A stretch of 48,541 nt of DNA from Chloroflexota bacterium (GTDB lineage: Bacteria > Chloroflexota > Ktedonobacteria > Ktedonobacterales > JACDGC01). The DNA lies in contig JAJYBV010000003.1 in assembly GCA_021778805.1 (NCBI GenBank), forward strand, positions 1 to 48,541, in the 5' to 3' direction. Positions 848-47,362 of this stretch are shown piece after piece. The notes below the pieces were generated by a model, which was not told where the DNA came from, ran no database searches, and saw only the letters and a list, made by a program, of their open reading frames with translations. The position numbers and the translations under genes were made by a program. Position 1 is the stretch's first letter. Every line of letters starts with the position of its first letter.

Positions 848-3800
848 ATGGACCTGATACGAAAATTAGAAGCTTATCGGGAAAGAGAACGTAAACTAAA
901 ATGGGAAGGCAATTTTTCGCAATATTTTGAATTAGTTGTGAAAAATCCGGCATTGGCGCAATTATCCCATGAGCGAATTTACAATATGATTATACAGGCT
1001 GGTACAAACACAACGCCGCAGGGTTTAACACATTATTCATTTTTTGACGGCGAAATATTTGGCCTGGAACGCTCCTTGCAACAATTGATGGAATACCTGC
1101 ATTCCGCTGCGCAGCGCCTGGAAGTGCGCAAACGTATTTTGTTGCTGATGGGGCCGGTTGGCGGCGGTAAATCTACCATTGTTACCCTCTTAAAACGCGG
1201 CCTGGAAGAATATTCCCGCACCGAAGAAGGGGCAATTTATGGTATTAAAGGCTGCCCGATGCACGAAGAGCCATTGCACCTTATTCCTAAAGAAATGCGT
1301 GAAGAAGTGCAAAATGAGTTTAACATCTACATCGAAGGTGAACTGTGCCCGAAATGCCGCTGGATGCTCGAAAATACCTATAACGGCGCCATCGAAAATA
1401 TTCCGGTGGAACGTGTAATGCTCAGCGAAAAAAATCGCACCGGCATTGGTACCTTTACTCCTTCTGATCCTAAATGCGTTACCGGTGATACACTAGTTCT
1501 TACCGATAATGGCCTGCAAACTATGGAAGACCTGTACAGTTCGCTGCCGCAGCGCCCCGGTGAGGATGCGTTTGTTCCGTTTACCGCAGCTGTATATGGC
1601 TGTGAGGGAACGGAAAGTTCTGCCATGTTCTATTTTGGCGGATTCCAACCAATTTTTGAGGTTGAAACAGAAAACGGTCTGATAATTCGAGGCACCGCAA
1701 ATCATCCCTTGCTTGTACAAGACGCCGGTGGCGCAAACAATTGGGTAAAAATTGGCGATTTGCAGCAAGGTGACACCGTACTTGTAACGTGCGGCTCACA
1801 GATGTTCGGCCAAACTGTGCGCTTGCCCTATAGCGCCGCTCCACTGGCGCGCAAACCCGAATTGTTAACCCCAAAATTTGCCCAGTGGCTGGGTGATCTT
1901 TACAATTCTGGTGTTCCATGCAATTGCCATAATACCGTTTCATTTAACCGGCGCTCACAAAAAGAAGCTGACAAACTGGCAGACACAATGGCTGATTTGT
2001 TTGGCGTTACCGGAACAATTCAGAACGATAACTCTTTTTATACAATGAAATTTGAAAGCTTGGAACTGCTTCAATGGCTGCAAGATATTGGCATAGATCG
2101 GGAATTGCGTTCGGCTCCGGCCATTATTTTAACGGCGCCAAAAGATATCCAGGCGGCGTTCATTGAAGGCGTTTTTGCCGGCGCGACGCTGGATTCCATC
2201 GAAGGGGTTGTTGAACTGCGCAATACCTTTTTAGAGGCAGATTTTGCCCGGCATGCGCAAATTATGCTGCTAAACGCAGGGGTTGCAAGCGTACTGAAGG
2301 TGAAAGACGCCCAAAACGGTGTTTATACCTTGGCGATTCCCGAACAGTTTTTAGCGGCTTTGTATCGTTTTGCTCCGGCGCTGCAATCTGCCCAAGTTTC
2401 GTATGCTTACGCCGGCTCCAGCAATACCGGCAGACTCAATATGCCGCGAAGCGCTTCACTCGCGACAGAGCATTCCGCAAGGTTATTGCCTTTTGCTGTG
2501 CGATCTATTCGCCCGGCCGGCATAGAACGGGTATACGATCTGCTGGTTCCGCAAACGCATTCCTTTACTGCAAACGGATTTATGCAGCATAACAGCCAAG
2601 ATATTTCTGAACTTGTTGGCGGCATCGATCTTTCCACAATCGGTGAAGTCGGCGCGGAAAGCGATCCACGGGCATATCGCTTTGACGGTGAATTAAATAT
2701 TGCCAATCGTGGTTTGGTAGAGTTTATTGAAATATTAAAAGCCGATGAGAAGTTTTTATATGTTTTGCTTACGCTTTCGCAGGAGCAGAATATTAAAACC
2801 GGCCGGTTCAGCATGATATACGCCGACGAAATGGTGATCAGTCATACCAACGAAAGCGAATATCAAACATTTGTAGGCAACCGTAAATCAGAGGCGCTGC
2901 AAGACCGCATTATTTTAATTAAAATGCCCTATAACCTGCGGGTCAGTGATGAAACAAAGATCTATGAAAAACTGCTGAAACAAAGTGCGCTGAAAGGAGT
3001 GCATATTGCCCCGCATACCTTGCGAGTTGCCAGTATTTTTGCGATTTTAACCAGGTTGGAAGAATCGAAAAAGCAAAGCATGACCAAAATGAAGAAATTA
3101 AAGGTGTACGACGGCGAGGAGTTTGAAGATTTTAAGAGTAAAGATATTCGCGAATTGCAGGAAGAAGCTATTCGTGAAGGTATGGATGGCATTTCCCCAA
3201 GATATGTCATTAACTCTTTGTCTGCGGCTTTGGTTAAAGATAATGTTACCTGCATTAACGCAATCGACGCGCTCCGCGCTTTACGCGACGGTTTAGAGCA
3301 GCATACCGGCATCAACCGCGAAACCCGCGAACAATATTTGGAATATATCAGTGAGGCGCGGCGCGAATACGATGAGATGGTGAAAAAAGAGGTGCAGCGC
3401 GCTTTTGTGTACAGCTATGAGGAAAGCGCCCGGAACTTATTGAATAACTATCTTGATAATGTTGAAGCATTTTGCAACAAAACGAAGGTGCGCGACCCGC
3501 TGACTGATGAGGATATGGAACCCGACGAGAAATTGATGCGCTCCATTGAGGAACAAATCGGGGTCTCGGGCAATGCAGCAAAAGGTTTCCGTGAAGAGAT
3601 TTTAATTAGAATTTCCTCGCTGGCGCGGCGCGGCCAAAAATTTGATTATAACAGCCACGAACGCCTAAAGGAAGCCATTGAGAAGAAATTGTTTGCCGAT
3701 ATGCGGGATGTTGTTAAAATTACTACTTCGGTCCGTACTCCGGATCCGGAGCAGTTGAAGCGGATTAATGAGGTGGTTCATCAGTTAATAGATAACTACC

Positions 3801-3862
3801 ATTACTGCCCTGTTTGCGCCAATGAACTGCTGCGCTACGCAGGCAACCTGCTGAATCGCTGA
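848..3862 (+). CDS. prkA: PrkA-type serine protein kinase (AAA+/kinase), interrupted by an intein
   Basis: 1004 residues against a usual PrkA length of about 630-650; the excess is one intein (residues 210-582). The N-terminal AAA+ part has the P-loop GPVGGGKS (102-109) and the PrkA signature CPMHEEPLHL near 136. After the intein the conserved SQDISELVGG resumes, followed by RFDGELNIANRGLVEFIE and the C-terminal kinase region ending in YCPVCANELLRYAGN. GGAGG (836-840) sits 7 bases before the ATG. PrkA (YeaG in enterics) is a cytoplasmic stress/starvation kinase that forms a conserved operon with YeaH and SpoVR, exactly as found here. The spliced protein would be about 631 residues, a normal PrkA. 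Splicing is presumably needed because the insertion interrupts the ATPase core. Confidence 0.95.
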   Translation: MDLIRKLEAYRERERKLKWEGNFSQYFELVVKNPALAQLSHERIYNMIIQAGTNTTPQGLTHYSFFDGEIFGLERSLQQLMEYLHSAAQRLEVRKRILLLMGPVGGGKSTIVTLLKRGLEEYSRTEEGAIYGIKGCPMHEEPLHLIPKEMREEVQNEFNIYIEGELCPKCRWMLENTYNGAIENIPVERVMLSEKNRTGIGTFTPSDPKCVTGDTLVLTDNGLQTMEDLYSSLPQRPGEDAFVPFTAAVYGCEGTESSAMFYFGGFQPIFEVETENGLIIRGTANHPLLVQDAGGANNWVKIGDLQQGDTVLVTCGSQMFGQTVRLPYSAAPLARKPELLTPKFAQWLGDLYNSGVPCNCHNTVSFNRRSQKEADKLADTMADLFGVTGTIQNDNSFYTMKFESLELLQWLQDIGIDRELRSAPAIILTAPKDIQAAFIEGVFAGATLDSIEGVVELRNTFLEADFARHAQIMLLNAGVASVLKVKDAQNGVYTLAIPEQFLAALYRFAPALQSAQVSYAYAGSSNTGRLNMPRSASLATEHSARLLPFAVRSIRPAGIERVYDLLVPQTHSFTANGFMQHNSQDISELVGGIDLSTIGEVGAESDPRAYRFDGELNIANRGLVEFIEILKADEKFLYVLLTLSQEQNIKTGRFSMIYADEMVISHTNESEYQTFVGNRKSEALQDRIILIKMPYNLRVSDETKIYEKLLKQSALKGVHIAPHTLRVASIFAILTRLEESKKQSMTKMKKLKVYDGEEFEDFKSKDIRELQEEAIREGMDGISPRYVINSLSAALVKDNVTCINAIDALRALRDGLEQHTGINRETREQYLEYISEARREYDEMVKKEVQRAFVYSYEESARNLLNNYLDNVEAFCNKTKVRDPLTDEDMEPDEKLMRSIEEQIGVSGNAAKGFREEILIRISSLARRGQKFDYNSHERLKEAIEKKLFADMRDVVKITTSVRTPDPEQLKRINEVVHQLIDNYHYCPVCANELLRYAGNLLNR
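1475..2593 (+). mobile_element. In-frame intein (373 aa) within PrkA with a degenerate LAGLIDADG endonuclease region
   Basis: The host sequence GTFTPSDPK is broken immediately before Cys210 and continues at Ser583 as SQDISELVGG. The intein has block A starting CVTGDTLVL, block B with GTANHPLLV (the T-x-x-H splicing motif), block F VYDLLVPQTHSFTANGF and the C-terminal His-Asn, with Ser as +1 residue. This is a complete class 1 set of splicing residues, so splicing is likely. The middle has two LAGLIDADG-like segments, AQWLGDLYNSG and FIEGVFAGATLD. The second has AGA where active enzymes have DAD, and the first has Ser where the catalytic acid is expected. The homing endonuclease is therefore probably dead. 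Boundaries follow from the flanking PrkA conservation and the Cys/His-Asn/Ser rule. Confidence 0.92.
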
Positions 3863-6624: not shown

Positions 6625-6715
6625 GTATTTTTGGGGACACCCCAATCCCCGCGCAAGGGGCGGCTGCCCCTTACGTAATCCCGGATTTTTTGTACCGTGC
6701 GGTGGTTGTAATGTA
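6625..6715 (+). repeat. Dispersed hairpin-forming intergenic repeat between convergent spoVR and fabH
   Basis: The core contains TTGGGGACACCCCAA (6631-6645) and a perfect second stem AAGGGGC-GGCT-GCCCCTT (6655-6672). It is followed by TGTACCGTGCGGTGGTTGT (6691-6709), identical to 183-201. It lies between two converging genes and its stems could act as a bidirectional transcription barrier. The long left half present at 50-115 is absent. Confidence 0.75.
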
Positions 6716-29257: not shown

Positions 29258-29263
29258 AACGCG

Positions 29264-29395
29264 GCGCACATAACCGGGGATTCGTAAGGGGCGGATGCCC
29301 CTTGCGCGGGGTTTGGGGTGTCCCCAAAAAATATCTTTTTATTTTATTTTCCGATGGGAAATATTGGTGGCCGGGTGGCCATAAAACGAACACCA
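29264..29395 (-). repeat. Dispersed hairpin-forming intergenic repeat, inverted long copy
   Basis: Read on the minus strand it matches 50-180: CGTGTGGTGTTCGTTTT, an A/T-rich part, AAAAAGATATTTT, TTGGGGACACCCCAA (29313-29327 region) and AAGGGGC-ATCC-GCCCCTT (29286-29303). Both stems are perfect while the loop differs from other copies, which points to selection on structure. It lies between the convergent GH13 and TIR-TPR genes. Confidence 0.75.
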
Positions 29396-29489: not shown

Positions 29490-32366
29490 CTACTCATTGC
29501 CTTTTGTTTCCTCTGAAAAGGTACTATTCTGAGATACAAAATTTTCGAATAATTGCATCGCATCTCTAAAATGAAATCGCTTTGCATATAATCTTGCTAA
29601 TACTTTTACTGGTTCTTGATATTTTTTATCACATTGTATCGATTGTTTTATGGCCGCTTCGGCTTCATTTTTCCTGCCCATCTCTAAGAGTATTAATCCA
29701 TATTTAAACCATATTCTTGCATTTTTTTTATCTAATTGCAAATACTGTTCGTATACTTTTATTGCTTCTTGATATCGTTTCAGACGATATAACATTACAC
29801 CTTTATTTTCCCATGCATCCCCGTTATTTGGTTGTAATTCTATTACCTTTTCATAACTTTCCAGTGCTTCTTTATACCGCTTCAATTGGGTCAGCGCTAT
29901 TCCCTTATTTCCCCAAGCAAGAGCATATTGGGGATCCAATTCCAGCGCCTTTTCATAATATTCCAGCGACTTTCCCCATTTTTTCTTCCTCATATATATT
30001 ACCCCTTTATTGTTCCATGCATTCGCGTTATCTGGCTGCAATTCTATTGCTTTGTCATAACATACAATAGCGTCTTCATATCGCTTCATTTCTGCCAGCG
30101 CTACCCCCTTATCCACCCAAGCAAGAGCATAGTATTGGGGATTAAATTCCAACGCTTTGTCATAACTTTCTATTGCTTTGTCATAACACTCCAGCGCTTC
30201 TTTATTCCGCTTCATTTCTGCCAGCGCTACCCCCTTGTTTATCCATATATAGGTGTTATCTGGCTGCAATTCCAACGTTTTGTCATAACACTCCAGCGCT
30301 TCTTTATTCCGCTTCAATTTTGCCAACGCTACGCCTTTGTTGTACCATGCGCCGGCGTTATCTGGCTGCAATTCCAACGCTTTGTCATAACTTTCCTGCG
30401 CTTCTTCATACCGCTTCATTTCTGCCAGCGCTACCCCCTTACGCCACCAAGCAAGAGCATATTGGGGATCCAATTCCAACGCTTTGTCATAACTTTCCTG
30501 CGCTTCTTCATACCGCTTCATTTCTGCCAATACTATTCCCTTACTTATCCAAACATAGGTCAATTGGGGATCCAATTCCAACGCTTTGTCATAACTTTCC
30601 AGCGCTTCTGCATATCGATTCAATTTTGCCAACGCGACTCCTTTACTTATCCATATCTTAGCGTTCTGTGGGTCCTCCTCTATTGCCCGTTCGTAGTATG
30701 CAATCGCTTTTGCCCATTGCTGCTCTTCCCTTTCCAGTTCACCTACTGCAAAATATATTTCTCCCAACTCCATTTTCGGTTCTTCCACTTGTTGATAGGC
30801 AGCTATCGCTTCCTCCTCTCTTCCAAGCGCTACACATAATTCCGCTTTGCGCACCCACATTTCCCAACAGTCCGGATATCCTTCCAGTACTTTCTCCAGT
30901 ACGCTCAGCTCCTCTTCCTTCTTGCCCAACTCCTGCAAACAACATCTTAAAATATCCCAGATATCATACCGCTCGGGAGTTTGCTGCACAATCTGCCGAT
31001 ATATGTTTGCCGCCGCTTCCCATTGATCCATTTGCCTATAGACCCATCCCTGACATTCCCTTATTTGGTTCTCTTCCGGTTTCAGTTTTGCTGCGCGCCC
31101 CAATGTTTCTAGCGCTTCTGCATATTGTCCTAGTTCTGCTTGTGCAATGCCATATGAAAACTGTATATCCCAATTCTCCGGATCATATTCTGCTGCGTGT
31201 CGATACGCTTCCTCCGTTTCTTCTTTCAGTTCCATTTCTACATAAATAACTCCGCGAATTTTCCAATAATAAGCTTTTTCTGAACTATATTGCTCTTTCA
31301 TCTGATTCCAAAAATAAGTTTTTGTCGTAAAATATTGCTCCGACATCTGAAATGCTTGCAATGCTTCTTCATAGCGGTGCATTTCTATATACACATATCC
31401 TAATTCATTCCAAGCATCACAATTCGCTTGATTCTGGGCAAGTATCTCCTTATATATTTCCGCTACTTCCCCATATCTGGCAAGATTCATTAACACATTG
31501 CTTTTGATTAATTTAAATCGTTCGTTAGTTGCATATTCTTCATTTTCTTGCTGTATGATTGCATATGCTTCCTCATAGTGTTCTATACTAAGTAATAACA
31601 TGATATAATCAAATAATAGATTAACTGAATGTTTTTTTGCTTTCATTGCATGCCGATAAACTTCCATTGCTTTTTCCGTATCTCCTAATAAATAATATAT
31701 ATATCCTAAATCATCCCACAGCATTTCATCATCTGGATTGGCATCCATAAATGGCAGTAATATTTCTACTGTTTTTCTATATTCTTTTAACTCAAGATAA
31801 ATCCTACCTTTGCGCGTAGCTGCTTTGACCCACGTTGGATCTTGCTGCGCTGCAGTTTCATACGCAATGAATGCCGCTTCATACCGCTTCTGCGCATATA
31901 ACCCATCTCCGCGGATAATCGCTGCTTCTTTGGTTTCTTGCTCAGGCGGTTCCGGCGCATGCGGCTCGGTCGCCGGCGTAATCGCCAGCATGCGAATAAG
32001 CTGCTTTGCAACTTCGCCTTCTTGGCCGGTTGCGATGATTGGTGTGTATGCTTGAAATTCTCCTGGTACCTCTCGCTCCTCCGGCAGTATTGCAAGATAG
32101 GTCATTCCGTTTGTTTCGGCTAACATATGTATTCGGCGCACCACCTGCATGGCATGTTCCGAGGCAGTTAACGTTTCGGTCAGCAAGCATACAATAATCT
32201 TGCAGTGTAAAATCTCTACTTCATAACGCCCCAAAATATCTTCATCAGGATGTATCTGCGCCGGCACAATCTGCGCTCCCGCTGTTTCCAGCGCATGGGT
32301 ATATCGCTCTGCCTGTTCACGGTCTTGCTCTGTGGAGATCAAACATATTTGCGCTGCTTCTGCCAT
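29490..32366 (-). CDS. TIR-like domain protein with a long tetratricopeptide repeat array
   Basis: 958 residues. Residues about 5-125 look like a TIR-type fold: ICLISTEQDREQAERYTHAL, then KIIVCLLTETLTASEHAM and AILPEEREVPGEFQ. Glu70 in the TASEHAM segment is at about the place of the catalytic TIR glutamate, but I cannot confirm it. An acidic linker leads to about 22 TPR units (about 150-945). Units from about 565 to 840 are nearly identical 34-residue copies (AWxNKGVALAEMKRYEEA). AAAGGA precedes the ATG. TIR-TPR proteins are candidates for NAD-consuming defence or signalling scaffolds. No partner enzyme is adjacent. Confidence 0.82.
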   Translation of the reverse strand: MAEAAQICLISTEQDREQAERYTHALETAGAQIVPAQIHPDEDILGRYEVEILHCKIIVCLLTETLTASEHAMQVVRRIHMLAETNGMTYLAILPEEREVPGEFQAYTPIIATGQEGEVAKQLIRMLAITPATEPHAPEPPEQETKEAAIIRGDGLYAQKRYEAAFIAYETAAQQDPTWVKAATRKGRIYLELKEYRKTVEILLPFMDANPDDEMLWDDLGYIYYLLGDTEKAMEVYRHAMKAKKHSVNLLFDYIMLLLSIEHYEEAYAIIQQENEEYATNERFKLIKSNVLMNLARYGEVAEIYKEILAQNQANCDAWNELGYVYIEMHRYEEALQAFQMSEQYFTTKTYFWNQMKEQYSSEKAYYWKIRGVIYVEMELKEETEEAYRHAAEYDPENWDIQFSYGIAQAELGQYAEALETLGRAAKLKPEENQIRECQGWVYRQMDQWEAAANIYRQIVQQTPERYDIWDILRCCLQELGKKEEELSVLEKVLEGYPDCWEMWVRKAELCVALGREEEAIAAYQQVEEPKMELGEIYFAVGELEREEQQWAKAIAYYERAIEEDPQNAKIWISKGVALAKLNRYAEALESYDKALELDPQLTYVWISKGIVLAEMKRYEEAQESYDKALELDPQYALAWWRKGVALAEMKRYEEAQESYDKALELQPDNAGAWYNKGVALAKLKRNKEALECYDKTLELQPDNTYIWINKGVALAEMKRNKEALECYDKAIESYDKALEFNPQYYALAWVDKGVALAEMKRYEDAIVCYDKAIELQPDNANAWNNKGVIYMRKKKWGKSLEYYEKALELDPQYALAWGNKGIALTQLKRYKEALESYEKVIELQPNNGDAWENKGVMLYRLKRYQEAIKVYEQYLQLDKKNARIWFKYGLILLEMGRKNEAEAAIKQSIQCDKKYQEPVKVLARLYAKRFHFRDAMQLFENFVSQNSTFSEETKGNE
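29990..30670 (-). repeat. Near-identical 102-bp tandem repeats inside the TIR-TPR gene
   Basis: DNA units of 102 bases recur; for example the ~49 bases starting at 30379 reappear unchanged at 30481. Blocks such as TTCTGCCAGCGCTACCCCCT occur at three or more positions. Such base-level identity, including silent sites, shows recent duplication or gene conversion. One unit (about 30150-30185) carries an extra in-frame insertion (YDKAIESYDKA), the mark of slipped repeats. Confidence 0.85.
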
Positions 32367-32696
32367 GGGAGGTATCCTTTTCTCGTTACTTGCCTAATTT
32401 CTTGGCTCGGATTCATTGCCGTTTCGCGCCAGTTTCCACTCTGAAACGCGCCATCTGCAGTGAAAATTCGATCGATATTCGCATCATACTACACGAGAAG
32501 CAACAGCGCAAACAAGCGGTAGCGCATTTGCTCTGCGCGACGCACATAACTAGGGATTCGTAAGGGGCAGTTGCCCCTTGCGCGGGGTTTGGGGTGTCCC
32601 CCAAAATATTTTTTTTTAAAAACAAACTCCGCACACCAGCGCTGGTAGTGATAGAGGGGAAATAAGCCAGATGGTTTCACCAAAGCAAAATTGCCG
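32367..32696. other. Gene-free stretch between the TIR-TPR gene and the next gene
   Basis: Apart from the repeat at 32540-32625, nothing is recognised here. No ORF with a ribosome site is seen. It presumably holds the TIR-TPR promoter, but no clear -35/-10 pair stood out. Confidence 0.4.
32540..32625 (-). repeat. Dispersed hairpin-forming intergenic repeat, short inverted copy
   Basis: Contains AAGGGGC-AGTT-GCCCCTT (32562-32579) and TTGGGG-TGT-CCCCCAA (32589-32604), again with stems kept and loop changed, followed on the plus strand by an A/T-rich ATATTTTTTTT end. It lacks the long A/T-rich half seen at 50-115. Confidence 0.72.
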
Positions 32697-42367: not shown

Positions 42368-42820
42368 ATGTATACGATAGATCAGGCCGCCAGTCGTCTA
42401 AAAATTACGAAACGTTCACTTCGCTATTATGAGGAAATCGGCCTTTTGCTGCCTCCGGAACGCACCGAAGGCAATTATCGGCTATACTCTGAGGAAGATA
42501 TTCTGAGAATTGAACGGATTTTGCGACTGAAAGAGGGATTGGGCGTTTCACTGAACGAAATTAAGGATATGGTGGCGTATGAAGATGAGCGTGTTGATTT
42601 AACACATTCCTTTCAATCTTCACAAAACAACCACGATAAAATTATTTTTCTGCGCCGCGGTGAAGCCCTTGCGCTGCAAGAACTGGAGATTATCAAGCGA
42701 AAAAAAGCAGCGCTCAGCAATATTGAAAAAACCACCAAACGGCGGCTGCAACGGCTGCAGCACCTGCGCGAAGAGCTTGAAAAAACATCTCAGCAGCCTC
42801 AGCTTCACCCATTACGTTAA
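42368..42820 (+). CDS. MerR-family transcriptional regulator
   Basis: 150 residues. The winged helix-turn-helix is clear at the N-terminus (MYTIDQAASRLKITKRSLRY, then YEEIGLL and a wing with GNYRLYSEEDI), followed by a long Arg/Lys/Glu coiled coil (about 90-142) and no metal-binding cysteines. It lacks an obvious effector domain, so it may be an HspR/GlnR-like stress or metabolic regulator. Its tail overlaps the convergent unknown gene by nine bases. A GGAG lies about 14 bases before the start, which is longer than usual. Confidence 0.88.
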   Translation: MYTIDQAASRLKITKRSLRYYEEIGLLLPPERTEGNYRLYSEEDILRIERILRLKEGLGVSLNEIKDMVAYEDERVDLTHSFQSSQNNHDKIIFLRRGEALALQELEIIKRKKAALSNIEKTTKRRLQRLQHLREELEKTSQQPQLHPLR

Positions 42821-43924
42821 GTTTTTCAGAAAGGACTCATCTGCTTTTTCTGCGGTAAGCGCCAATTCTTCCCAAATTTGGCCATACTCGCGCAAGACAT
42901 CTGCAGATTGCACAAAACCAGCCTGCAATTTTTGCGCTTCCACAAACGCTGTTAATCGCTGTTTTGCGGCGCTTTTCCGCGTTGCGGCGTCTTCACTCCA
43001 AATTTGAAATACCGCGCCGCTAAGTACCGTTTGCAGTGTTCCAATATAGGGCAGCAGCCGCGCGCCTTGCTCCTTTTTCAGCGTCGCCGGTTTCACCAGC
43101 GCGCGAACTTGCTTCCTTTCAGCGCCATCAAATGTAACACTTTCCGCAAATCCCCGCTGTCGCATCCATTCATGTACGCCATGTACAACGTCGCGGATAT
43201 CACCTACTGGCAATAGTTCGGCAATTTCAGAGTTTTTAGAAATCTGAGCTGAAAGGATGGGCAGAATATTTTCAGTTCCGGGACTGGCAACTCGCCAAAA
43301 CGCGCCCTCATCTTTCGCTATTTTCAGAAGCAGCGCCGGCGCAAACCGCAGTTCAATTTCTTGCGTGGCAAGCTGTTCGGCGCCTTGCAGATGAAACTGC
43401 TCCGCATACTCATCGCCCAAAACATTTTGCAGCGCTGAATCTGCCCAATCTTTTTGGCAAAAAAGCAAGGTTCGGCCAAAGGGGCCAAATTGCAACTGCG
43501 CAAATTCATCCGGAAATAGCGGTTCCAACGTTAAAGCGTTCCAGTGCAGCATCCGTTCATGAAAGCGAATCTGGCCCACAGCGCGCGAATTCAGAAAGCG
43601 ATCAAACTGTGAACCGGCGCTGAACACACCGTTCTGCGTCTCCAAAATTTTGGCGGCGCACAAATTTTGCGCAACGGGTTCTACCAGCGCAGCGCTTACA
43701 CCTAAAAACTCACAAAATCCTTGCACACTATGAATATTTGCCTCACCAACGCAGCGGCACAGGCTCAGCTCTAAATAAGGCTGCTCAATGGGTGTTTGTG
43801 TTTGAAAACGAAAAATAACAGCATAGAACGGCAAATCAATTTGTTTTGCTGCAATAATAGGATAATTCAATGCCTGTTGAATGCGCGTAAGTGTATAAGA
43901 AACATTTTGTTCAATTTGTAACAT
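42812..43924 (-). CDS. Unknown protein encoded with an SF1 helicase
   Basis: 370 residues with no family I recognise, no signal peptide and no membrane segment. Residues about 68-108 (VQGFCEFLGVSAALVEPVAQ followed by NLCAAKIL and GVFSAG) have the length and hydrophobic spacing of a winged helix-turn-helix, which is tentative. The C-terminal third (about 290-370) is helical and charged. It starts 18 bases after the helicase stop on the same strand and ends overlapping merR. The tight linkage suggests it works with the helicase on nucleic acid, for example as a DNA- or RNA-recognition partner. Confidence 0.75.
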   Translation of the reverse strand: MLQIEQNVSYTLTRIQQALNYPIIAAKQIDLPFYAVIFRFQTQTPIEQPYLELSLCRCVGEANIHSVQGFCEFLGVSAALVEPVAQNLCAAKILETQNGVFSAGSQFDRFLNSRAVGQIRFHERMLHWNALTLEPLFPDEFAQLQFGPFGRTLLFCQKDWADSALQNVLGDEYAEQFHLQGAEQLATQEIELRFAPALLLKIAKDEGAFWRVASPGTENILPILSAQISKNSEIAELLPVGDIRDVVHGVHEWMRQRGFAESVTFDGAERKQVRALVKPATLKKEQGARLLPYIGTLQTVLSGAVFQIWSEDAATRKSAAKQRLTAFVEAQKLQAGFVQSADVLREYGQIWEELALTAEKADESFLKNLT

Positions 43925-43942: not shown

Positions 43943-46861
43943 TTATTGCGCCGCGCTGAAAAATTCTGCGGCGTTGATTAAAGTTCCATATGTGGTAATA
44001 TGCTCAGTAATTGCGCGCATTGCGCCGGCAAATGTGTCATCTTTTGCGTTGTGCAGTGTGGATGAATCTCCAACAAGTATAAGCTGCCGCTTTGCTCTGG
44101 ATAAAGCAACATTTAATCTGGTTTGTTCGGCCAAAAACCCAACCGCGCGCTGAGCGCTGCTGCGTGTGAATCCAAATAAAATAACATCGCGTTCGCTGCC
44201 CTGAAAGGCGTCTACGGTACTCACTGAATCTCCAATCACTGCTTTTTGTTCGGCGTCAAATTTTTGCAGCAATAAATTTCTGATAGTGCGCGCCTGTTCG
44301 CGATATGGTACGATAACGCCGACACTGATTTGCGGATCTTTCAAAAGAATTTCTCCAAACAGATCCGCCAAAATCTCTGCTTCACGAATATTGAAAAACC
44401 CTTTATGATTAACATTTTGTTTTTCGCGGCGATTAGCCAAATCGGCAGTATCAATAAAAATAATTCGCCGATCGAAGAGCGGAACCGGATTTTCAGCGGA
44501 TTGCGTAACCGAAGCATCAGTATGTATTTCGGAGTGATAAAAAAGTTTTGAGACCAGATCGGCAATTTCAGGAGCCATACGATATTGGATATTCAGCAAG
44601 GTTTTATGCGAATTTGGAGTTGTGGCAAACATCTCGGCAAAAACACTTTTTGCGCGAACATTACGCACAAACGCGCGAGTTTCTTCTGCTTGCTGACTAC
44701 CCGCGCCAGATTTTGCGTCGAACCATTGCTGAAAATCAAATTTCTCCGCCGGCGGCAGCTGCATATCATCGCCGGCTAAAATAGTTTTGCGCGCGCGCGC
44801 CATTGGGATAATTGCATCTATCAGGGAACATTGGCCGGCTTCATCGATGATTACCACATCAAAATATTGCTCCTCCACAGGCAGCGCCGCTGCAGATCCA
44901 ATTGTGGTAGCGGCAATAATCCGCGCAGAGCGTGTAATAGTTTGCGGCAGCCAAGTTTCGCTGCTTTGCAAAGCCGCAGACCAATCTTGCAAAATAGCAG
45001 TTTGCCGCGCGCGCAAATCTGCGGAATGCCCTAAACCTAACAAACGGGTGTTGGCGCGGATCGCTGCGGATTGCGGGACAGATTTAGGAAAATCAAGAAA
45101 AACACCGGCGGCGGCAAAAATATGCTCAATATGTTCAACGATTTGCCGCCAGTTTGTTTCGGTCTCGCTTATTTGCTTATCCAGCGCTAAAATAGGCGGG
45201 CCTTGCAATTTTGCCGTCAATTCGCAGTTCATTGAAAGATATTTCTGCTGAATTGCATTGCTGCGATCAGATATTTGCTGCAGTAACTGCTGCGCGCGCT
45301 GCAAATGATGTTCCGTTTGCCGCAAGCGCCAATTATGAGCAATTTTATTCCAAAAAGTTACCTTGCGCTGCCGCAGATCCGCCAACCGCGTTTCTAACAG
45401 CTGAATTTGCTGTAACGCTGCGTCATACTCATCCAAAGCCTTTGCGTAAGCAGCGCGATTTGCCGGCAGCGGTTTGCGGTATGGCGCGCGTATTTTGCTG
45501 ATTTGTTTTTCTTTTTGCTGCCGCAGTCGAATGATGCTATGTTCAGTTTTTTCGCAAAGCCGCAACTCAGAAACCAATTCATGCTCTAGTTTATGCAGCA
45601 GCTTTGGGCTGCGCGCATATTCTTGAAACTGCTGTAACTGTACTTCACAGTTTTTCACAGCATTTTTTCTCTGCTCATCGGCTAAAAATTCCGCGGTAAA
45701 CTGACGCATTTCATCAGTAATGCGCTCTTCTTTGCCGGCGCGTATGCGCAAACAGACATCCGGCACAGCTTTTAAAGCAGTATCTGCAGCCTTATTGCTA
45801 TGCGCGGTAAGCAGCACTCGGGAACCGTTCTGCGCATAATATGCGGCAAGCTCACCGACTGTTTTTGTTTTACCTGTTCCCGGTGGGCCTTTAATTAAAT
45901 AAACGTCCTTTGCTGCTATAGCATTTTGAATAGCGTCTGCTTGCGTTTGATTCAATGTTTCCGGAGCAATAAAATGTTGCGCGTCTTTTGCCTTAGGTTG
46001 AAAATCTTTGCCTAAAAGCGTTTCTGCAAGAAAGGGATTTTCAGTTGCGCGCTCGCGCATACGCTGTACCGTTTCGGTATAGCGCCACGCCTGAAAAGGT
46101 GAAATTTTTTCGAGAGATCCGGCGGCAGGAATTAAAGCTACATCCGCGTGCGCCATTTTGTTCAGCCGAATACGTGCCAGTGAATCTGCCGCAATCACCA
46201 CTTCCCCTGTAACCTCTGTGTCCGTAAACCGAACCCGGTCTTCTGCCAGTAAATAATTTTCCGCAGCGTTACTAACAAGATCGATACAGTTACGCAGATC
46301 GGAATCTGCTCCATCCGCAAATACCCATTCTGAGTAAGCAATTTTTGTGTGAGCGGTGTCTTTTTCAAAGCGATCCCACAAGGTAATTGCGGTATTCAGT
46401 TCAATTAATTTTTGTGAATATTCCTGAAATTGATGTGAATTTTTTTGTTGATGCTGTGCTTGTTCAGCCAGTTTGCTCCAAGTTTGCAGCGTCGCCAATT
46501 GATTTTCAGAGGTCGTTTTGGGATGGTTAGCGGTATTATCCGCAATGACAAATCGTAAATTCGGCAATTGCAAGCGATACAACTGAGAGGCAGGCAATTG
46601 AAATCCAGTCGGAATGCTTGTAATAGCTTCCAATTGCAACTCAGCGGAGGAAGTGGTAAATGAACAATAGACAGAAATTTGCGGGGCGCAGAATGTTATA
46701 TGGGTATCATCAGCAAAAAAAGCCGGAATATAAGGCAGAGCTTCAAGAGACCTCGCTATGTGATCCATTGGCATCTTTAATTCTGCCATGGCGTTTGCTT
46801 CAACAAGCGGAGCAACCACACATATCAGATCAGAATAGCGCTGTATAGGCAAATACTGCAT
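43943..46861 (-). CDS. SF1B (Upf1/Dna2-like) helicase with long coiled-coil insertion
   Basis: 972 residues from the ATG at 46861, where homology-like sequence begins (MQYLPIQRYSDLICVVAPLV); more upstream in-frame Met residues fall in A/T-rich promoter DNA. Helicase motifs: I GPPGTGKT (near 324), II VVIIDEAGQ (near 670), III AGDDMQLPP, IV LNIQYRMAPEI, V VDAFQGSERDV and VI NVALSRAKR (near 915). A coiled-coil segment (about 400-590) lies between motifs I and II. The ~300-residue N-terminus has no motif I know. Relatives unwind DNA or RNA in repair and in some phage-defence systems. Here the only partner is the unknown protein behind it. Confidence 0.88.
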   Translation of the reverse strand: MQYLPIQRYSDLICVVAPLVEANAMAELKMPMDHIARSLEALPYIPAFFADDTHITFCAPQISVYCSFTTSSAELQLEAITSIPTGFQLPASQLYRLQLPNLRFVIADNTANHPKTTSENQLATLQTWSKLAEQAQHQQKNSHQFQEYSQKLIELNTAITLWDRFEKDTAHTKIAYSEWVFADGADSDLRNCIDLVSNAAENYLLAEDRVRFTDTEVTGEVVIAADSLARIRLNKMAHADVALIPAAGSLEKISPFQAWRYTETVQRMRERATENPFLAETLLGKDFQPKAKDAQHFIAPETLNQTQADAIQNAIAAKDVYLIKGPPGTGKTKTVGELAAYYAQNGSRVLLTAHSNKAADTALKAVPDVCLRIRAGKEERITDEMRQFTAEFLADEQRKNAVKNCEVQLQQFQEYARSPKLLHKLEHELVSELRLCEKTEHSIIRLRQQKEKQISKIRAPYRKPLPANRAAYAKALDEYDAALQQIQLLETRLADLRQRKVTFWNKIAHNWRLRQTEHHLQRAQQLLQQISDRSNAIQQKYLSMNCELTAKLQGPPILALDKQISETETNWRQIVEHIEHIFAAAGVFLDFPKSVPQSAAIRANTRLLGLGHSADLRARQTAILQDWSAALQSSETWLPQTITRSARIIAATTIGSAAALPVEEQYFDVVIIDEAGQCSLIDAIIPMARARKTILAGDDMQLPPAEKFDFQQWFDAKSGAGSQQAEETRAFVRNVRAKSVFAEMFATTPNSHKTLLNIQYRMAPEIADLVSKLFYHSEIHTDASVTQSAENPVPLFDRRIIFIDTADLANRREKQNVNHKGFFNIREAEILADLFGEILLKDPQISVGVIVPYREQARTIRNLLLQKFDAEQKAVIGDSVSTVDAFQGSERDVILFGFTRSSAQRAVGFLAEQTRLNVALSRAKRQLILVGDSSTLHNAKDDTFAGAMRAITEHITTYGTLINAAEFFSAAQ

Positions 46862-46951
46862 AAAAAAATATCCGTTTCTCTCACGCCGGTTGTTTTCTGG
46901 CAGTCTGAAAGGCAGCTCACAAAAAAGCGCCAAACATGATCTACGGAAACT

Positions 46952-46981
46952 AGCATAACGTATAATTCTGAATTTTGTCAA
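46952..46981 (-). promoter_or_regulatory. Sigma70 promoter of the helicase operon
   Basis: On the minus strand a perfect TTGACA (46976-46981) and TATGCT (46952-46957, 4 of 6 to TATAAT) are 18 bases apart. Transcription would start near 46945, about 85 bases before the helicase ATG. The inverted repeats at 47006-47149 lie just upstream of the -35. Confidence 0.65.
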
Positions 46982-47005
46982 GCAAAAAACTATTTGCACA
47001 AATAT

Positions 47006-47149
47006 TATGTTAACATATAAAATATTCATTTTACATAATATTTTATCAGAATAAACGAATTTAAAAAGTAATTTTAAATTCGTTAAAAAACTATTGACTT
47101 TTAGGTAAAAACTGTGTAAAATTGTGTTTACGCAATAGTACTTATTGCG
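47006..47149. repeat. Cluster of four perfect inverted repeats upstream of the helicase promoter
   Basis: In order: the 12-base palindrome TATGTTAACATA (47006-47017); ATAAAATATT (47017-47026) with AATATTTTAT (47037-47046); AACGAATTTAAAA (47054-47066) with its 13-base complement (47072-47084) across a 5-base loop; and CGCAATA (47131-47137) with TATTGCG (47143-47149). None is followed by a T run in a terminator position. They may be regulator operators or remnants of transposon end hairpins. Confidence 0.8.
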
Positions 47150-47362
47150 GTGTTGTGTAAGCAAAGAGGAGGTTCTGACAGCTTGCGTCTGAATGCAAAA
47201 TATAAAACAAATTGATTTATTTCATTTATTCTTTGCCGGCTCTCCGGTATTGCAGAAGACGCAGAAAAAAGGAAGTAAAGGGTTATACATAGATCCTGGA
47301 TCGATTGCAGATCATCCATATTCCATTTCCATGGTAACATAGGGACATAAAGGTAGGTCAAT

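What the first reader, a model, noticed from the sequence alone, without database searches (positions are those of the whole stretch)
29490..32366. TIR-TPR protein with recently amplified 102-bp repeats
An N-terminal TIR-like domain joined to about 22 TPR units is unusual in size, and the middle units are nearly identical at the DNA level (49 identical bases 102 apart at 30379 and 30481), with one slipped, irregular unit. Recent expansion suggests changing partner binding, as expected of immune or self-recognition proteins. The TIR catalytic glutamate is not certain.
Basis: partly seen in the sequence, partly recalled or inferred. Interest (0 to 1): 0.55.

Follow-up and report, generated by a model that had tools for sequence, protein, structure and literature searches.

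The report
Disarmed TIR protein with renewing TPR array
A Chloroflexota bacterium carries a protein that joins a TIR-like domain lacking the usual NAD-cutting residue to a long row of binding repeats, some of which were copied over one another fairly recently; the layout itself is common in this bacterial order.

Summary
The 958-aa ORF at 29490-32366 (-) is real. Its N-terminus is a divergent TIR domain: sub-threshold Pfam TIR_2 hit (25.9 of 28 bits), and an AlphaFold model whose best structural matches are TIR domains (Z about 14). The NADase glutamate is valine (V75) and the conserved tryptophan before it is histidine, while 17 of 18 relatives keep Glu and one has Asp. So it is probably not an NADase. 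The rest is TPR: about ten canonical units after a divergent helical stretch. The DNA repeats beat codon shuffles (59 bp against at most 35), but whole units are only up to 82% identical, so 'nearly identical' is too strong. Unit-to-unit dS (0.30-0.64) is below the species-split dS of four genes in a same-genus genome (0.78-1.26), so copying postdates that split. TIR-TPR proteins are common here (four in this genome) and large ones are in print. In two paralogues compared between the two species, one array is conserved unit for unit, while another, syntenic, array has been renewed in each species. Best reading: a catalytically dead TIR sensor or adaptor with a renewing binding array. Immune function and strain-level copy-number change are not shown.

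The parts
29490..32366 (-). whole TIR-TPR gene, 958 aa, stop codon included
   Evidence: ORF list and translation; no in-frame stop; own-genome search places it at G000:C97
31977..32366 (-). divergent TIR-like domain, aa 1-130
   Evidence: Pfam TIR_2 E 1.5e-5, 25.9 bits against cut-off 28; AF2 model pLDDT 75, pTM 0.66; Foldseek and VIA-align best rows are mostly TIR domains
32142..32144 (-). codon of V75, in the column where TIR NADases have the catalytic Glu; H71 stands where they have Trp
   Evidence: alignments A7 and A9; the column holds only Glu/Asp in the relatives in 461 of 500 resampled alignments
31917..31976 (-). Pro/Glu-rich linker, aa 131-150
   Evidence: translation; lowest pLDDT of the TIR model at 132-136
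30663..31916 (-). divergent helical, TPR-like stretch, aa 151-568
   Evidence: weak local HMM TPR hits; helices in the single-sequence model, low confidence; a 45-bp duplication at 31261-31350
29724..30662 (-). canonical TPR array, aa 569-881
   Evidence: 10 strong TPR HMM hits between aa 570 and 881, the slipped unit giving two pieces; Pfam TPR_1 E 9e-112 for the protein
30027..30653 (-). sub-array most alike in DNA, aa 572-780
   Evidence: 102-bp units up to 82% identical; TRF period 102, 4.7 copies at 30175-30653; over all pairs of 8 units 342 of 490 same-residue codons are identical against 229 expected
30369..30427 (-). one copy of the 59-bp exact repeat
30471..30529 (-). other copy of the 59-bp exact repeat
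30120..30245 (-). slipped unit, aa 708-749, 42 aa
   Evidence: unit parse; 21-bp tandem duplication by TRF at 30148-30199

Best explanation
This is a member of the large TIR-TPR family of Ktedonobacterales-type Chloroflexota whose TIR domain has lost its NADase residues. It most likely works as a non-enzymatic sensor or adaptor. The TPR superhelix binds a protein or peptide ligand, and the dead TIR passes the signal on by pairing with Glu-bearing TIR proteins of the same cell (for example the TIR-TPR proteins on contigs C64, C13 and C89), much as adaptor TIRs without the Glu do in animals. The canonical part of the array is kept young by unequal recombination or gene conversion between 102-bp units, and the differences that remain fall mainly on ligand-facing positions. 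Shown here: gene, TIR-like fold, missing Glu, repeat homogenisation, its timing relative to the species split, position bias. Inferred: ligand binding, TIR-TIR pairing, a defence role.
For: TIR identity: Pfam TIR_2 E 1.5e-5; fold matches to RRS1, RPS4, SPARTA and SARM1 TIRs. Catalytic residues: V75 and H71 against Glu in 17 and Asp in 1 of 18 distinct relatives; position robust in 461 of 500 alignments. Family context: 10 TIR_2 hits in the own genome, the window's the weakest and the only one under cut-off; three other own-genome TIR-TPR ORFs; PF13676 in 46 of 47 genomes of the order. Repeat youth: 59-bp run against null maximum 35 in 400 shuffles; unit dS 0.30-0.64 against 0.78-1.26 between species. 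Genus-level precedent for turnover: syntenic C89/C279 arrays, 18 of 18 parsed units closest to their own array, neighbouring genes 84% and 93% identical. Ligand-face bias: p 0.002 in the window array, 0.014 in C89, 0.0004 in C279, absent in conserved C64 (p 0.22).
Against: No partner, ligand or phenotype is known. The gene stands alone among sugar-metabolism and signalling genes, not in a defence island, although a Mokosh MkoA-like helicase lies about 12 kb away. TPR ligand-face variability is general in TPRs (PMC1261162, passages seen), so it shows a binder, not an immune receptor. Unit dN/dS is 0.27-0.61, below 1, so positive selection is not shown. The TIR model has middling confidence (pLDDT 75), and DNPH1-type nucleotide hydrolase folds score almost as well (Z 13.3). 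The relatives used for the Glu count were found with canonical-TIR patterns or TIR_2, which favours Glu-bearing ones.
Confidence: 0.5

Rival explanations
1. Still an active effector: the divergent TIR, or a related nucleotide-hydrolase-like activity, uses another acidic residue, and ligand binding to the TPRs switches on NAD or nucleotide cleavage, as in TIR antiphage effectors.
For: Fold similarity to SPARTA, SARM1 and DNPH1 enzymes; E70 lies near the site.
Against: Both the Glu75 and Trp71 columns are changed, and the VWYDE and SH motifs conserved in the relatives are also lost. No alternative catalytic residue was identified.
Confidence: 0.15
2. A decaying former TIR-TPR effector: the TIR part drifts under relaxed selection and the repeats recombine without consequence.
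For: Weakest TIR_2 score of the genome; residues 1-145 match only the own genome among 400 genomes of the phylum; the slipped unit breaks the 34-aa period.
Against: 958 codons open without a stop; the slipped unit is 8 whole codons longer, so frame is kept; TIR secondary structure is predicted intact; unit dN/dS below 1.
Confidence: 0.2
3. A housekeeping scaffold: an ordinary TPR protein for assembly or signalling in which the TIR-like domain is only an oligomerisation module, unrelated to conflict.
For: Neighbours are starch metabolism, transport and two-component genes; TPR proteins are abundant in this genome.
Against: An array renewed since the species split is unlike C64, whose ligand-facing positions differ between species at 5 of 63 sites against 50 of 243 elsewhere.
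Confidence: 0.15

Closest known systems
Bacterial TIR domains of BPPS group 6 (PMC7075850; passages and two sections read)
   Same: N-terminal TIR plus many C-terminal TPRs in one protein of more than 700 aa
   Different: Mostly actinobacterial; their box 1 and BB-loop consensus (RDFFVSY, WD..PG) is not seen in the window protein
Ktedonobacterales TIR-TPR paralogues (this genome C64, C13, C89; CP126532.1 and other MAGs)
   Same: Same order of domains; several also show DNA-level TPR copying (C89, C279, L087b, L088)
   Different: 17 of 18 relatives (not all TIR-TPR) keep the catalytic Glu and one has Asp; most have the canonical SH and VWYDE motifs
Fungal NLRs with internally conserved WD, ANK or TPR repeats (PMC4986451; abstract and passages read)
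   Same: Tandem repeats homogenised, variation on the concave ligand face
   Different: They have a NACHT or NB-ARC NTPase and the internally conserved class has repeats over 85% identical across 100 aa; the window protein has no Walker A motif and its best 100-aa self match is 73%
Plant RPS4/RRS1 TIR pair
   Same: Best Foldseek rows for the window's TIR model; a receptor pair in which RPS4 TIR interaction is linked to NAD+ hydrolysis (PMC9153377, passage read)
   Different: Plant NLRs with NB-ARC and LRR; similarity here is of fold only, 10-13% identity

Membership tests
TIR domain superfamily (Pfam TIR_2, PF13676) | profile score over the curated cut-off | tested here: not met
   25.9 against 28 bits, E 1.5e-5; own-genome scan 25.7 bits, marked below cut-off
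TIR domain superfamily (Pfam TIR_2, PF13676) | TIR fold (five-stranded sheet flanked by helices) | tested here: met
   AF2 model with alternating strands and helices in TIR order, pLDDT 75; TIR domains lead both lists, TM 0.66-0.68 and Z about 14; DNPH1-type folds close behind
TIR NADase | catalytic Glu (E75 of the survey, four residues after the conserved Trp) | tested here: not met
   V75, with H71 at the Trp column
TIR NADase | NAD+ cleavage | not testable with these tools
   needs an assay
TPR proteins | 34-residue TPR units | tested here: met
   TPR_1 E 9e-112; strong HMM units in aa 570-881
BPPS group 6 TIR-TPR proteins | N-terminal TIR, C-terminal TPRs, over 700 aa | tested here: met
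   958 aa with this order
BPPS group 6 TIR-TPR proteins | group 6 box 1 and BB-loop patterns | tested here: not met
   window reads AQICLIS and PAQIHPDED at these places by inspection of the alignments; patterns quoted in PMC7075850
STAND/NLR receptors | NACHT or NB-ARC P-loop NTPase | tested here: not met
   no NTPase among the 25 Pfam families shown (36 found, 11 not shown) and no G-x4-GK[ST] motif
High-internal-conservation repeats (fungal NLR definition) | over 85% identity over at least 100 aa of repeats | tested here: not met
   best ungapped 100-aa self match 73%; L088 reaches 85%
Known antiphage systems in PADLOC | match to a system model | tested here: not met
   whole protein hits only PrimPol and generic TPR models by its TPR parts; the TIR part only TmtA at E 0.053

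The most novel reading that the evidence does not exclude
TIR-TPR proteins of Ktedonobacterales form a bacterial analogue of fungal NLR repertoires: some members keep a fixed sensor array, while others, including this enzyme-dead one, renew their TPR arrays within each species by recombination, so that a dead-TIR sensor with a renewing array could recognise changing phage or kin ligands and recruit Glu-bearing TIR partners.
Probability: 0.2. Interest if true: 0.75.

Novelty: new variant of a known kind. Interest (0 to 1): 0.38.

Why it matters
If the reading holds, one bacterial genome offers conserved and renewing TIR-TPR arrays side by side, so that repeat renewal of the kind described in fungal NLRs could be tested in a bacterial receptor without an NTPase. 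The enzyme-dead member would ask whether bacterial TIR networks use adaptor TIRs as animals do. If it does not hold, the gene is an ordinary divergent TIR-TPR protein.

Tried and rejected
Orthologue of this very gene: none seen. The same-genus genome G001 breaks off inside both flanking genes (contigs C101 and C237), its search with the gene next door found nothing, and a genome-contig scan with aa 1-540 found no relative (own and near records may be left out there). So comparison of the window array itself between strains or species was not possible; C89/C279 serves as a proxy.

Gene cassette idea: an 81-bp direct repeat lies on both sides of the gene (29260-29340 and 32536-32616, 88%). Rejected as a cassette boundary because the same element has 81 matches in the genome (387 first-look candidates, 40 scored) and 4 copies in the window.

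Assembly artefact: considered unlikely because exact repeats are 59 bp at most and whole units at most 82% identical; reads were not available. A longer case (119 bp exact, L088) lies on a record titled 'chromosome, complete genome'.

Full-length single-sequence AF2 model: mean pLDDT 49, used only for a rough helix count and for the same TIR strand order. Alignments A1 and A8 placed gaps in the window's TIR differently; A9 was chosen from 500 resampled subsets for having few gaps, which favours compact alignments.

Papers: ten searches. None of the listings showed a paper on repeat renewal in bacterial TIR-TPR proteins; subscription journals and most preprints are not held. The numbering E75/W71 is from PMC7075850. 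That the RRS1 TIR is inactive on its own is recalled, not checked.

Full report
What is there. The window belongs to a 3.25-Mb draft genome in 157 contigs. Named relatives are Ktedonobacterales or Chloroflexi MAGs (one is titled Proteobacteria); the same-genus genome G001 shares a 4759-bp contig and an identical TIR row with 'Chloroflexi bacterium isolate YF1.bin12'. The ORF 29490-32366 (-) codes for 958 aa. It stands alone: 330 bp separate it from the next gene upstream, and downstream an alpha-amylase gene converges on it.

The N-terminus. Residues 1-145 hit only TIR_2 in Pfam, E 1.5e-5 and 25.9 bits, under the curated 28. A protein search matched only the own genome among 61 near genomes and among 400 genomes of the phylum. 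AlphaFold2 on a six-row alignment gave pLDDT 75 and pTM 0.66 with strands and helices in TIR order. Foldseek ranks RRS1 and RPS4 TIR domains at the top with TM 0.66-0.67, along with SIS-domain and other Rossmann-like chains. VIA-align gives Z 15.0 to 12.7 for the 50 listed entries, mostly TIR domains, with DNPH1 at up to 13.3. I take it as a divergent TIR.

The catalytic site. In alignments of the window with relatives, the column of the catalytic Glu is V75 and that of the Trp four residues before it is H71. One early alignment placed a gap here instead. In 500 resampled alignments V75 stood opposite only Glu or Asp in 461. Of 18 distinct relatives (10 rows and 8 further ones, three rows being the same loci), 17 have Glu and one Asp; L086 was left out because of a stop. 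PMC7075850 (section read) reports that this Glu is in more than 70% of TIRs, is critical for NADase activity, and is rare in adaptors such as MyD88 and TIRAP. So NADase activity is unlikely but untested.

The repeats. Canonical TPR units score strongly between aa 570 and 881; upstream units are weak. Units in aa 572-780 are up to 82% identical in DNA and 76% in protein. The longest exact repeat is 59 bp against at most 35 bp in 400 codon-shuffled versions, 200 with the codon usage of other window genes and 200 with its own. Over all 28 pairs of 8 units, 342 of 490 sites with the same amino acid share the codon; 229 are expected. The 4 unit pairs above 77% identity have dS 0.30, 0.34, 0.38 and 0.64, against 0.78, 0.87, 0.98 and 1.26 for four gene pairs between the two species. 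Units are short, so these dates are rough. They say that the copying is younger than the species split, not that it is recent at strain level.

Two modes of evolution in paralogues. The TIR-TPR genes C64 (this genome) and C164 (G001) are 80% identical as proteins without a gap up to the contig end of C164. All 9 shared units that I parsed match the same position in the other species best (0.71-0.82); a tenth unit lies beyond the contig end. There is no DNA excess of repeats (79 and 89 of 100 shuffles reach the observed run). By contrast C89 and C279 lie beside the same two genes (84% and 93% identical), yet all 18 parsed units (8 and 10) are closest to a unit of their own array; in three of them the margin is only about 0.01. 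The N-terminus of C279 is beyond its contig end. Of 12 TIR-TPR ORFs tested for exact repeats, 5 exceed all their shuffles: window, C89, C279, L087b (27 against 25 bp) and L088 (119 bp). Some of the 12 are orthologues of each other. The window gene is thus one of several and not the most extreme.

Ligand face. PMC1261162 (passages read) names positions 2, 5, 9, 12, 13, 33 and 34 as the most variable in TPRs, all on the concave face. In the window array entropy there is 1.57 against 0.69 elsewhere (p 0.002), in C89 1.24 against 0.51 (p 0.014), in C279 1.76 against 0.88 (p 0.0004). Leaving the slipped unit out, p is 0.0014; with the five most alike units, 0.022; in C64, 0.22. Between the species, C64 differs at 5 of 63 ligand-facing and 50 of 243 other sites (Fisher p 0.026), as for a kept ligand. 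No multiple-test correction was made, and units for these tests were chosen by a motif. Unit dN/dS is 0.27-0.61, so relaxed constraint or mild diversification, not proven positive selection; PMC5120217 (passages read) reports this pattern for repeats in general.

How common. The own genome has 10 TIR_2 hits in 9 ORFs; the window's is the weakest. Four TIR-TPR proteins are seen in this genome: the window, C64, C13 and C89. PF13676 is found in 46 of 47 genomes of the order. Large TIR-TPR proteins are in print as group 6. The architecture is therefore ordinary.

Mechanism. The best-supported reading is a binder with a dead TIR: the array holds a ligand, and the TIR pairs with active TIR proteins as an adaptor or brake. 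Shown: fold, missing Glu, copying, bias of variation. Inferred: ligand, pairing, defence role. The composition is at the low edge for this contig (GC 0.42 against a mean of 0.47 for 20 other genes, range 0.418-0.541; GC3 0.387 against a range of 0.402-0.519), which may reflect the TPR part alone, since the TIR part has GC 0.51.

What would change the verdict. A second strain with a different array, or contact between this TIR and a Glu-bearing one, would raise the interest; NAD cleavage by the domain would overturn the mechanism.

Noticed in passing
window 29260-29340, 32536-32616, 130-159, 6633-6662: Dispersed intergenic element rich in short palindromes (core about 64 bp), 81 matches in the genome with only 40 of 387 candidates scored, often in arrays of about 90-bp spacing, several at contig ends.
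   Followed up: partly
window 848-3862: PrkA kinase gene carries an intein-like segment (Pfam Intein_splicing, aa 217-582), followed by DUF444 and SpoVR genes.
   Followed up: no
window 43943-47164: Helicase with AAA_11 and AAA_12 domains matching PADLOC MkoA (Mokosh) at E 8.9e-107, beside an unnamed 370-aa gene at 42812-43924.
   Followed up: no
L067 4623-6077 and 2790-4355: A second TIR protein lies head to head with the C89 TIR-TPR gene in the same genome.
   Followed up: no
L087 2423-3931 and 4001-6307: Two TIR-TPR genes in tandem in a Ktedonobacterales MAG titled complete genome, CP126532.1.
   Followed up: no
L088 3869-5290: TIR-TPR gene of CP126532.1 with a 119-bp exact repeat at lag 306, a three-unit duplication that looks more recent than the window's.
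   Followed up: partly
L073 and L074: TIR domains with stretches bearing GTFLMGSD (both) and GNVWEWT (L073, a neighbouring overlapping frame) motifs, resembling formylglycine-generating-enzyme folds (recalled), in the own genome.
   Followed up: no
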